From positions 1 to 28,661 of IMG/VR virus record IMGVR_UViG_3300000101_000107: 28,661 bases of DNA; one strand, written 5' to 3'. Shown piece by piece: positions 3,206 through 4,799 of the stretch; position 1 is the first letter of the stretch, and the number at the start of each line of letters is the position of its first letter. The DNA comes from a virus. A model generated the notes under the pieces. The model made no database searches, was not told where the DNA came from, and saw only the letters and a program-made list of their open reading frames with translations. The position numbers and the translations under genes are program-made.

Positions 3206-3416
3206 GGTTAGGGTCGCCGTTTACAATGCGGCCAATCTTGTGGCAAATCATGTCGAGGGACTCTTTTTGTGCAGGGCTTAGCTTTGTGTAGCTCTTGCCA
3301 GTGGTGCAGGCGTGCTTCATTTGTTGCGTTACCGCAGAGTGTTCCAAAAAGTCACCATAGCGCTCCCCACGTTCTTTAAGGGTTTGTGTGATATCAGTCA
3401 TAATATGAGCTTTCAT
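3138..3416 (-). CDS. DUF6378-type phage protein
   Basis: This protein of up to 92 residues carries ERGERYGDFLEHS near the N-terminus and then LSPAQKESLDMICHKIGRIVNGDPNHADSWHDIAGY (read in parts). This pattern is recurrent in phage proteins annotated DUF6378. The mostly helical fold with conserved acidic residues recalls all-alpha NTP pyrophosphohydrolases, but that link is inference. Two in-frame ATGs (3416 and 3401) are possible starts; GAAAG before the second makes it plausible. The 3' end overlaps the next gene. Confidence 0.75.
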   Translation of the reverse strand: MKAHIMTDITQTLKERGERYGDFLEHSAVTQQMKHACTTGKSYTKLSPAQKESLDMICHKIGRIVNGDPNHADSWHDIAGYSKLAEDSIKNS

Positions 3417-3423
3417 TTAATTG

Positions 3424-3738
3424 TTATACAAACGCGAGTATTGCCATAATGTCATATTCATCATGAGAACCTTTTGCGCTATTGCAGTCCTTACATAGTA
3501 GCTGTAAATTGTTAATCTTATTTGAGCCATGCTTTGACTTTGGTATTATGTGGTCTACCGTCAAATCTTTTACTGATCCACAATACCCACAATGCTGACC
3601 GTCTCTTTTTAAAAGTTGATTTAAATACCTGCTCTTAAAAGATTTATTCTTAAAGGAAGGCCTGACTTTTGCTTTAGGCCGCTCTTTCCAAGCCTTCATA
3701 AGTTCAGCGTTATTTTTTCTTTGCTGCTCACAAATCAT
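3424..3738 (-). CDS. HNH endonuclease
   Basis: This 104-residue HNH nuclease has a basic N-terminal arm (1-45) and a classic domain: CGYCG (C50, C53), DHIIPKSKHG (D62-H63), N77 in INNLQLLC, and CKDCNSAKG (C82, C85). The two CxxC pairs hold structural zinc, and DH plus N form the beta-beta-alpha metal active site. GAAGG lies seven bases before the ATG. It follows the 590-base non-coding stretch and starts the run of nuclease-type genes. It could be a free-standing homing nuclease or a packaging-type HNH; nothing here distinguishes these. Confidence 0.88.
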   Translation of the reverse strand: MICEQQRKNNAELMKAWKERPKAKVRPSFKNKSFKSRYLNQLLKRDGQHCGYCGSVKDLTVDHIIPKSKHGSNKINNLQLLCKDCNSAKGSHDEYDIMAILAFV

Positions 3739-3759
3739 CTTAAGACCTTCATTTAATTA

Positions 3760-4290
3760 GTGCGCCTTAACCCAAGCGCGGGGGCTACCATACAAAGTTC
3801 CCTTTATACTTTAACCGACTAGAAATCGGGGTCACTGCTCACCAGAGTTAGTTATTTTCATAACCTCAATCAGCTGGAATTGAACCAACCTCCCTCCGCA
3901 CCAGCCCTCGACCAGCGAGTGAGAATCGAACTCACCCTTTGACATGCCACTCAACATCTCAAAGAATGGCCAGACACGCTCTGGCGGGCGACTAACCCCC
4001 ATTTGACTAGGGTGATGCAAAACACTGGCGAGTGTTAAGCGGTTCTTGTTAATTCTGTGCCAGATACGCTCTGACGGGCGATTGAACCGATGCAACCGTC
4101 CAAGACGATTTCGTTGGCAAGCCCAGACTTTCGTCCTTTTTAACATCCGTCATTCAATTTTGTGCCCCGTAAGGTGGAACATTCCTTTTGCGGGCAGGGT
4201 CATCCTACCGTAGCGTCACGAGTCACACTTCCTAAGCTATTGCACATCTAGGTCGCGCCTAGCCGCCGCAAAACTTTTATGTATAAATAC
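3760..4290 (-). ncRNA. candidate structured non-coding RNA (leftward)
   Basis: The stretch 3739-4329 has no convincing gene but is dense in stem-loops, more GC-rich than its flanks. Read leftward: a hairpin at 4163-4196 (TGCCC/GGGCA outer, GGAA/TTCC inner); GGAC-GAAA-GTCT at 4125-4136 (GNRA loop); two copies of a 17-base hairpin (4059-4075, 3969-3985); AACACT-CGCC-AGTGTT (4021-4036); T-arm-like GTGAG-TTCGATT-CTCAC (3919-3935) and GTTGG-TTCAATT-CCAGC (3873-3889); and GTTAT-GAAA-ATAAC (3851-3864). The T-loops fit the tRNA TTCRANY pattern, yet no complete cloverleaf can be drawn. Large phage RNAs such as GOLLD or ROOL, or decayed tRNA genes, are alternatives. Ends are approximate. Confidence 0.45.
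3969..4080 (-). repeat. two copies of a 22-bp hairpin repeat, 90 bp apart
   Basis: Copies at 3969-3990 and 4059-4080 differ at two positions. In each, the first 17 bases fold into a 6-bp stem with a 5-base loop. One difference lies in the loop; the other turns a C-G pair into U-G in leftward RNA, but would give a C-A mismatch in rightward RNA. Confidence 0.7.
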
Positions 4291-4303
4291 AAACATATTT
4301 TAT

Positions 4304-4337
4304 ACTATACTTCATATATAAGTATAGTTCTATACTT
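4304..4337. promoter_or_regulatory. AT-rich inverted repeat, operator-like or terminator-like
   Basis: ACTATACTT (4304-4312) and AAGTATAGT (4320-4328) are perfect 9-bp inverted repeats 7 bases apart; TATACTT recurs at 4331-4337, inside the last codons of the pseudogene. It separates the leftward small genes from the RNA-like region, so it may be an operator, a weak terminator, or part of a promoter (TATAAA follows leftward). Confidence 0.4.
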
Positions 4338-4596
4338 CTTTCATTTTGTTTATTTTTGCAAGGGCTTGTTTTGCGTAAAAGCGGGCTTTACGGTATCTTT
4401 CTGTGTAACAGCCAAACGATATAGGGGCTGCCACTTCTTTAAGACCTAATTCAGCCACCGCCAGGATTTCCTTAGTGCGGGATAACTCGGCGGCTAGGGC
4501 TTCTTAAATAGGGCGCTTGTTCCATTTAAGCCCTTCAACTTCTAAAATAAACCCCGCTTCATGATGCCACTTTGGTACTAATTTAAATTCACTCAT
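4330..4596 (-). pseudogene. broken paralogue of the gene at 12424
   Basis: An 89-codon frame runs from ATG 4596 to TAG 4330 but is interrupted by TAA at 4504-4506 (codon 31). After the stop, the frame continues as AAELSRTKEILAVAELGL, then FGCYTERYRKARFYAKQAL. This is nearly the same as residues 40-90 of the intact gene at 12424-12705. The N-terminal parts differ apart from MSE. The start regions share a 27-bp exact repeat (4586-4612 and 12408-12434). One base change (for example GAA or AAA to TAA) would explain the break. A truncated 30-residue product, readthrough or sequencing error are alternatives. Confidence 0.7.
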
Positions 4597-4612
4597 GGTT
4601 ATTTATCCTTTA
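4586..4612 (-). repeat. junction repeat A, copy 1
   Basis: 27 bases, spanning the ribosome site and start of the broken gene (core AAAGGATAAATAACCATGAG), match 12408-12434 exactly. Confidence 0.85.
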
Positions 4613-4799
4613 TTTTGAATTTTCGTGCATCTCTAGAATGTTGCGTGCCATTTGTGTTGTAATGACAGTAATACTTTTCGCCATCTATAAAAATTTCACC
4701 TGTAAAATCCCAAGGCATTGGTGAAAAAACACCCTCCTCATGTGTAATTCGCATTTCGTTACCGCAAACAGTTTTGTATGTGCCAATCTGTATATCCAT
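4599..4799 (-). CDS. hypothetical 66-residue protein
   Basis: The protein starts MDIQIGTYKTVCGNEMR and ends KFKIKDK. It is rich in aromatic residues and likely beta-sheet (GEIFIDGEKYYCHYN), with two cysteines. A longer in-frame start at 4916 is rejected because the ATG at 4799 follows GGAGGGGG directly. That ribosome site and start are part of a 26-bp sequence found exactly before the gene at 12245. The gene therefore occupies the slot that an unrelated small membrane protein fills in the other operon. Function unknown. Confidence 0.65.
   Translation of the reverse strand: MDIQIGTYKTVCGNEMRITHEEGVFSPMPWDFTGEIFIDGEKYYCHYNTNGTQHSRDARKFKIKDK

What the first reader, a model, noticed from the sequence alone, without database searches (positions are those of the whole stretch)
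3760..4290. Candidate large structured RNA in a leftward early operon
About 590 bases (3739-4329) lack a credible gene in an otherwise gene-packed phage. The leftward strand holds at least eight perfect or near-perfect hairpins, including two 17-base T-arm look-alikes with TTCGATT and TTCAATT loops (3919-3935, 3873-3889), and two GAAA tetraloop hairpins (3851-3864, 4125-4136). T-loops and GNRA loops are hallmarks of compact RNAs. Known phage large RNAs (GOLLD, ROOL) have such features and often lie near tRNAs. No full tRNA cloverleaf can be drawn. A new RNA class, a divergent member of a known class, or decayed tRNA genes are the options.
Basis: partly seen in the sequence, partly recalled or inferred. 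Interest (0 to 1): 0.72.

Follow-up and report, generated by a model that had tools for sequence, protein, structure and literature searches.

The report
New phage RNA with two tRNA-like elbows
The gap holds a previously uncatalogued, intact phage RNA of about 160 bases, shared by about 40 diverse phages and related elements and often placed among their tRNA genes, whose fold contains two copies of the 'elbow' that gives transfer RNA its L shape; its function is unknown but testable.

Summary
The conserved RNA is 3938→3778 (minus strand), about 160 nt; the rest of the gap (3939-4329) shows no relatives and no unusual folding. A covariance model built without the window finds it at 129.6 bits, E 1.9e-35, and finds 40 further loci: IMG/VR phages, eight GenBank phages (Ebordelon, Holyagarpour, D6, Touem01, OBP, SXP01, FBKp24, SA002), a Vibrio record and a Clostridia MAG contig. 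Covariation is overwhelming: 35 of 43 pairs change on both sides (at most 18 when slid), including a long-range helix and a 3' pseudoknot. Each T-arm is followed by a GG-loop mini-hairpin, and T-loop positions 55 and 56 covary with loop positions 18 and 19 of their own module only (pooled Fisher P 3e-7 and 1e-7; crossed modules: none). That is the tRNA elbow contact, twice in tandem. It matches no Rfam family (GOLLD and ROOL included), is not decayed tRNA and is not coding. Eight loci abut tRNA genes within 3 nt, so the unit is stand-alone. Most likely a stable trans-acting tRNA-elbow mimic; that function is inferred. I regard it as a new RNA class.

The parts
3778..3938 (-). The conserved RNA (full model match, positions 1-171)
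   Evidence: R2, built from 26 relatives without the window and with a structure found by RNAalifold, scores 129.6 bits, E 1.9e-35, the only match in the window
3917..3937 (-). P1 = T-arm 1, loop UUCGAUU at 3930-3924 (positions 55 and 56 = U3929, C3928)
   Evidence: 5 of 7 pairs change on both sides in A3
3910..3913 (-). 5' strand of long-range helix PL (GGUC)
   Evidence: pairs with GACC 3833-3830; 4 of 4 pairs change on both sides, 100% of cells paired; eye-read UGUC/GACA in L029, UGUA/UACA in L033
3898..3905 (-). Mini-hairpin GC(UGGU)GC, D-loop-like partner of T-loop 1 (G18 = 3902, G19 = 3901)
   Evidence: closing pair columns 44-52 rank 19th of 14,057 column pairs; loop covaries with T-loop 1
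3873..3889 (-). P2 = T-arm 2, loop UUCAAUU (positions 55 and 56 = U3883, C3882)
   Evidence: 4 of 5 pairs change on both sides, 95.6% paired
3851..3864 (-). P3 hairpin with GAAA loop (optional; absent in L009, L026, L012)
   Evidence: 8 of 8 pairs change on both sides in relatives
3838..3847 (-). P4 CUC(UGGU)GAG, D-loop-like partner of T-loop 2 (G18 = 3843, G19 = 3842)
   Evidence: stem nearly invariant in A3 but replaced by CUU/AAG in L010 and GACUC/GAGUC in L052; loop covaries with T-loop 2
3830..3833 (-). 3' strand of long-range helix PL (GACC)
   Evidence: see PL 5' strand
3815..3829 (-). P5 hairpin, loop UUCUA
   Evidence: 4 of 5 pairs change on both sides
3790..3809 (-). P6 hairpin GUAUAAAG(GGAA)CUUUGUAU
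   Evidence: 7 of 7 pairs change on both sides
3785..3787 (-). 3' terminal UAG, pseudoknot with CUA 3822-3820 in the P5 loop
   Evidence: 3 of 4 pseudoknot pairs change on both sides, 95.8% paired; columns 163/199 rank 5th of 14,057

Best explanation
SHOWN by comparative evidence: window 3938→3778 (minus) encodes an intact member of a conserved structured RNA family of about 105-190 nt, spread over phages of very different kinds. Its core is two tandem modules, each a T-arm followed by a mini-hairpin with a GG loop, whose loops dock as the T- and D-loops of tRNA do (55-18 and 56-19 contacts). A 4-bp long-range helix and a 3' pseudoknot tie these into one fold. INFERRED: in phages with tRNA clusters it is cut out of the tRNA operon transcript (a tRNA begins or ends within 3 nt in eight loci), is stable, and acts in trans as a tRNA-elbow mimic, binding host or phage machinery that recognises elbows or T-arms (tRNA-processing, -modifying or -cleaving enzymes, or the ribosome), so shielding or adjusting the tRNA pool during infection. 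The partner is not identified.
For: Independent-model match in the window, 129.6 bits, E 1.9e-35. 41 loci match R2 at E<=0.01. Jumbo-phage members found by BLAST and not in the seed of R1 match it at E 4e-35 to 7e-47. 92.1% of cells paired against 34.5-48.0% when slid; 35 of 43 pairs with changes on both sides against at most 18. The 18 best-covarying column pairs of 14,057 are all structure pairs, pseudoknot and long-range helix included. Elbow contacts: A56-U19 in L014 and L044 (module 1) and L024 and L042 (module 2), G56-U19 in L045 (module 2), C56-G19 in all 63 other assignable cases; G55 always goes with non-G18; none of this across modules. In tRNA, residue 56 pairs with 19 and 55 with G18 (PMC4810234). 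tRNA genes within 3 nt in eight loci and within 600 nt in 14 of 41. One copy per genome in 14 of 14 records searched whole.
Against: No expression data. No protein partner and no consistently linked gene; no Ro/TROVE gene in 17 records. The window itself has no tRNA gene, and 27 of 41 loci have none within 600 nt in the DNA held. Many members sit 14-60 nt upstream of an ORF, which would also fit a leader role. The elbow pairs were noticed and tested on the same data, and related sequences were counted as independent.
Confidence: 0.5

Rival explanations
1. A cis-acting 5' leader: a tRNA-like fold in the mRNA that raises or switches translation of the next gene, as the yjdF riboswitch does.
For: The next ORF with a Shine-Dalgarno-like start lies 14-60 nt downstream in many members (window 39 nt, L001 50, L036 14, L019 23, L032 44, L043 43). 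tRNA-like leaders, including yjdF, can raise translation (PMC9142559).
Against: In L038 and L042 a tRNA gene begins within 3 nt of the 3' end, and tRNAs also follow in L010 and L012. The downstream genes differ: HNH endonuclease in the window, a 'tellurite resistance' protein in L001, an ankyrin protein in L005.
Confidence: 0.2
2. A processing or stability element of phage tRNA transcripts: the T-arms attract RNase P, RNase Z, TruB or TrmA and help neighbouring tRNAs mature, without a separate role.
For: Abuts tRNA genes within 3 nt in eight loci. T-arms and elbows are known recognition surfaces for such enzymes (PMC4810234).
Against: Many members, the window among them, have no tRNA nearby. 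The conserved P5/P6/pseudoknot part is not needed for T-arm recognition.
Confidence: 0.2
3. Divergent GOLLD or ROOL, or another catalogued RNA.
For: Phage RNAs found near tRNA islands, like GOLLD and ROOL (PMC12286853).
Against: No Rfam match in the core of the window or of 11 further loci at E<=5 beyond a 9.7-bit T-arm match to tmRNA in L010; no GOLLD or ROOL match in 8 records (no positive control rang). About 170 nt against models of 416 and 574 positions.
Confidence: 0.02
4. Decayed tRNA genes.
For: Two 17-nt T-arms with canonical loops; no cloverleaf.
Against: All helices, the pseudoknot and both elbow contacts are intact here and are maintained by compensatory changes in 40 other loci.
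Confidence: 0.01
5. A conserved protein frame across the region.
For: A 104-aa ORF at 3832-4146 (-) overlaps the RNA.
Against: No PHROGs match; among 35 cores of at least 140 nt only 1-3 are open in any given forward frame and at most 12 in any reverse frame; lengths are not multiples of three.
Confidence: 0.01

Closest known systems
tRNA elbow (D-loop/T-loop docking)
   Same: T-loop positions 55 and 56 contact positions 18 and 19 of a GG loop, with the same registers (PMC4810234)
   Different: Two elbows in tandem; each T-arm comes before its D-like hairpin; no anticodon arm, no acceptor-CCA; extra P5/P6 and a 3' pseudoknot
yjdF riboswitch (tRNA-like aptamer with D/T-loop association)
   Same: Non-tRNA bacterial RNA that uses an elbow-like contact (PMC9142559)
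   Different: No Rfam match to it; one elbow, mRNA leader; ours has two elbows and often follows or precedes tRNA genes
GOLLD and ROOL RNAs
   Same: Phage-encoded structured RNAs of unknown function, often near tRNA islands (PMC12286853)
   Different: Much larger, no model match
Phage T4 stable RNAs rnaC and rnaD (species 1 and 2)
   Same: Small stable RNAs of unknown function (from memory) next to phage tRNA genes; rnaC has a T-arm
   Different: No homology: best R1 score in the T4 tRNA region 9.5 bits, T-arm region only
Interdigitated double T-loop modules (T-box Stem I, RNase P, L1 stalk)
   Same: Two T-loops in one RNA, linked to tRNA biology (PMC4810234)
   Different: There the two T-loops dock with each other to bind a tRNA elbow; here covariation shows each T-loop docking with its own GG loop
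Y RNA-like YrlA
   Same: tRNA-like module in a bacterial ncRNA (from memory)
   Different: No YrlA match in our core; no Ro/TROVE gene in 17 records

Membership tests
New family (tandem-elbow phage RNA) | Covariance model match over all 171 positions | tested here: met
   129.6 bits, E 1.9e-35 with the window left out of the model
New family (tandem-elbow phage RNA) | Long-range helix PL and P5-loop/3' pseudoknot | tested here: met
   window GGUC/GACC and CUA/UAG; covariation in relatives
New family (tandem-elbow phage RNA) | Two T-loop/GG-loop contacts | tested here: met
   window has U55, C56, G18 and G19 in both modules; covariation within modules only
GOLLD (RF02032) | Match to the Rfam model | tested here: not met
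   no match at E<=5 in region 3400-4700; no match in 8 records (control genomes did not ring)
ROOL (RF03087) | Match to the Rfam model | tested here: not met
   control genomes did not ring
tRNA (RF00005) | Cloverleaf with acceptor, D, anticodon and T arms | tested here: not met
   ARAGORN 0 genes in the window; no tRNA match in the core (only tRNA-Sec 17.8 bits, E 2, over 3911-3985)
tmRNA (RF00023) | Match to the Rfam model, tag reading frame | tested here: not met
   only a 9.7-bit T-arm match in L010
yjdF riboswitch | Match to the Rfam model | tested here: not met
   all Rfam families searched, no match
Y RNA-like / Ro RNP | Ro (TROVE) protein in the same genome | tested here: not met
   0 of 17 records; one control genome rang
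T4 rnaC/rnaD | Homology beyond a T-arm | tested here: not met
   9.5 bits, T-arm region only
Stand-alone stable RNA | Discrete processed transcript | not testable with these tools
   no expression data held

The most novel reading that the evidence does not exclude
A widespread phage-encoded RNA class presents two tRNA elbows side by side as a decoy or scaffold that titrates elbow- or T-arm-recognising factors (for example host tRNA-cleaving defence enzymes, tRNA modification enzymes or RNase P), protecting or retuning the tRNA pool during infection.
Probability: 0.3. Interest if true: 0.92.

Novelty: categorically new. Interest (0 to 1): 0.8.

Why it matters
It is an uncatalogued RNA class with a well-determined fold, present in isolated phages (OBP, Ebordelon, D6 and others) where it can be deleted, probed and pulled down. 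Tandem tRNA elbows have, as far as my searches show, not been described in a bacterial or phage RNA. It gives a concrete handle on the old question of what the non-tRNA stable RNAs in phage tRNA clusters do, and its ~170-nt size makes structure determination realistic.

Tried and rejected
Folding energy as evidence: both strands of the 591 nt look better than shuffles, and the true core alone is only z -1.46, so it was dropped in favour of covariation. A weak MAFFT similarity of the 5' part to phages Ebordelon and Holyagarpour did not reach E 0.01 in blastn. CCA-binding by the UGGU loops (T-box-like): rejected because the loops vary (UUGC, UGUU, UAGG, UGUG), and mostly in step with the T-loops. 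CsrA-like GGA sponge: considered for the CGGAAU loop of P6, not pursued, single site. Search for close relatives of the window phage through its DnaB: none. RF01998 was searched by mistake for GOLLD (it is a group II intron domain). Bacterial genomes: strict pattern 0, looser pattern 1 contig; model R2 in 33 genomes of the order of that MAG: only the MAG itself, so the family looks phage-borne rather than chromosomal. Literature searches found no description, but only open-access full text was searched.

Full report
WHAT IS THERE. The gap 3739-4329 has no credible gene, no tRNA and no Rfam match at the gathering score or at E<=5 that means anything. A distant blastn search with the gap hit a stretch of unannotated DNA in Pseudomonas phages Ebordelon and Holyagarpour (81.5% over 65 nt, E 8e-7) and in a Vibrio parahaemolyticus record (E 3e-5). 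All three hits centre on the two T-arms.

COLLECTING THE FAMILY. Degenerate patterns read from those copies found more in IMG/VR, and BLAST with these found phages D6, Touem01, OBP, SXP01, FBKp24 and SA002. MAFFT alignment A3 of 18 members gave covariance model R1, which matched the non-seed jumbo phages at E 4e-35 to 7e-47. Model R2 was built from 26 members without the window, with the structure left to RNAalifold, which returned the same helices. R2 finds the window at 3938-3778 with 129.6 bits, E 1.9e-35, and nothing else in it. In all, 41 loci match R2 at E<=0.01: the window, eight GenBank phages, one Vibrio record, one Clostridia MAG contig and 30 IMG/VR contigs (a few near-identical to each other), lengths 104-192 nt, 50-71% identical to the window's copy. 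The 14 records searched whole carry one copy each.

STRUCTURE. Pair counting on A3: 92.1% of 751 cells form standard pairs (34.5-48.0% when the partners are slid), 35 of 43 pairs have changes on both sides (14-18 when slid), covariation score 0.666 against 0.075-0.134. An unbiased ranking of 14,057 column pairs by an APC-corrected G statistic puts structure pairs in all of the first 18 places. Order 5' to 3': P1 (T-arm 1), PL 5' strand, mini-hairpin NC(UGGU)GN, GAAGGGAG, P2 (T-arm 2), UGAU, optional P3, P4 CUC(UGGU)GAG, ACAAAU, PL 3' strand, P5, UUAAA, P6, AGGGGCA. PL is 4 bp and holds in all 18 sequences through GGUC/GACC, AACC/GGUU, AGCU/AGCU and others. The 3' end pairs with the P5 loop (GCCC/GGGC, GCAC/GUGC, GCUC/GAGC; CUA/UAG in the window).

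TWO ELBOWS. The 19th-ranked pair closes the mini-hairpin after T-arm 1, and columns 20 and 48 (second T-loop base and first G of the mini-hairpin loop) also stood out. Reading both modules in all members and tabulating 35 distinct lineages: the third T-loop base (56) is C with G19 in 63 cases and non-C with U19 in 5 (A56-U19 four times, G56-U19 once), with no exception; the second (55) is U in 62 cases, 60 of them with G18, and G in 6 cases, none with G18. The pooled Fisher P is 1e-7 (56-19) and 3e-7 (55-18). When T-loops are crossed with the other module's loop there is no association. These are exactly the tRNA elbow contacts, 56 with 19 and 55 with G18 (PMC4810234). The models contain no pairs between these loops, so they did not impose the result. 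Limits: the pattern was seen and tested on the same data; lineages are not fully independent; module 1 of L042 and L043 and three weak members (L006, L011, L040) were set aside, and a few loops of unusual length were assigned by eye.

CONTEXT. A tRNA gene ends 1-2 nt before the RNA in L010, L041, L048, L049, L050 and L053 and begins within 3 nt after it in L038 and L042; 14 of 41 loci have a tRNA within 600 nt on the same strand (annotated in D6, OBP and FBKp24). So the unit has sharp ends and no large domain. The downstream genes are unrelated to each other. In the window the RNA lies 39 nt upstream of an HNH gene (3424-3738) in a leftward run with DUF968 and DUF6378 genes, in a phage with a phrog_156 portal protein, DnaB and ERF.

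THE REST OF THE GAP. 3941-4275 folds like its shuffles (z -0.18) and is not similar to any relative's flank. It carries a 22-nt imperfect repeat.

WHAT IT DOES. Shown: an intact, selected RNA fold with two elbow contacts. Inferred: a stable trans-acting tRNA-elbow mimic. A leader or a tRNA-processing element remain possible. Viral tRNA mimics that copy the elbow and so engage tRNA-binding factors are precedented (TYMV; PMC4810234), as is a non-tRNA bacterial RNA with an elbow (yjdF; PMC9142559).

NOVELTY. No Rfam family matches the window or 11 other loci in the core. GOLLD, ROOL, Ro/Y RNA and T4 rnaC/rnaD were tested and not met; for GOLLD and ROOL no positive control rang. Open-access literature searches found nothing. 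I therefore call it a new RNA class, with the caveat that subscription papers and most preprints were not searched.

Noticed in passing
L012:1137-1220 (-): Directly downstream of this RNA lies an 84-nt unit that matches tmRNA above Rfam's cut-off (50.6 bits, gathering 47) at both ends but has no room for a tag reading frame; a tRNA-Arg follows.
   Followed up: no
window 3969-3990 and 4059-4080 (-): 22-nt repeat CGCCCGYCAGAGCGTRTCTGGC, two copies 90 nt apart, each a hairpin with a GCGTR loop; none expected by chance.
   Followed up: partly
L040:2560-2640 (+): In phage Touem01 a tRNA-like T-arm unit sits on top of a long helix (GGAAGCTCAAC/GTTGAGCTTCC) in the 945-nt gap upstream of the RNA.
   Followed up: no
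window 4303-4329: Palindrome ACTATACTT-ATATATG-AAGTATAGT, operator-like, at the head of the gap.
   Followed up: no
L050:7023-7246 (-): ARAGORN calls a phage tmRNA with a long putative tag in the same 108-kb phage contig.
   Followed up: no
L024 and L052, just 5' of the RNA: An additional non-cloverleaf T-arm unit (e.g. GGAGAC...GTCGGGTTCGATTCCCGAGCTTCTCC in L052) directly precedes the RNA.
   Followed up: no
L011, L052, L054: Compact subtype of 104-116 nt; L011 seems to lack the second T-arm altogether.
   Followed up: partly
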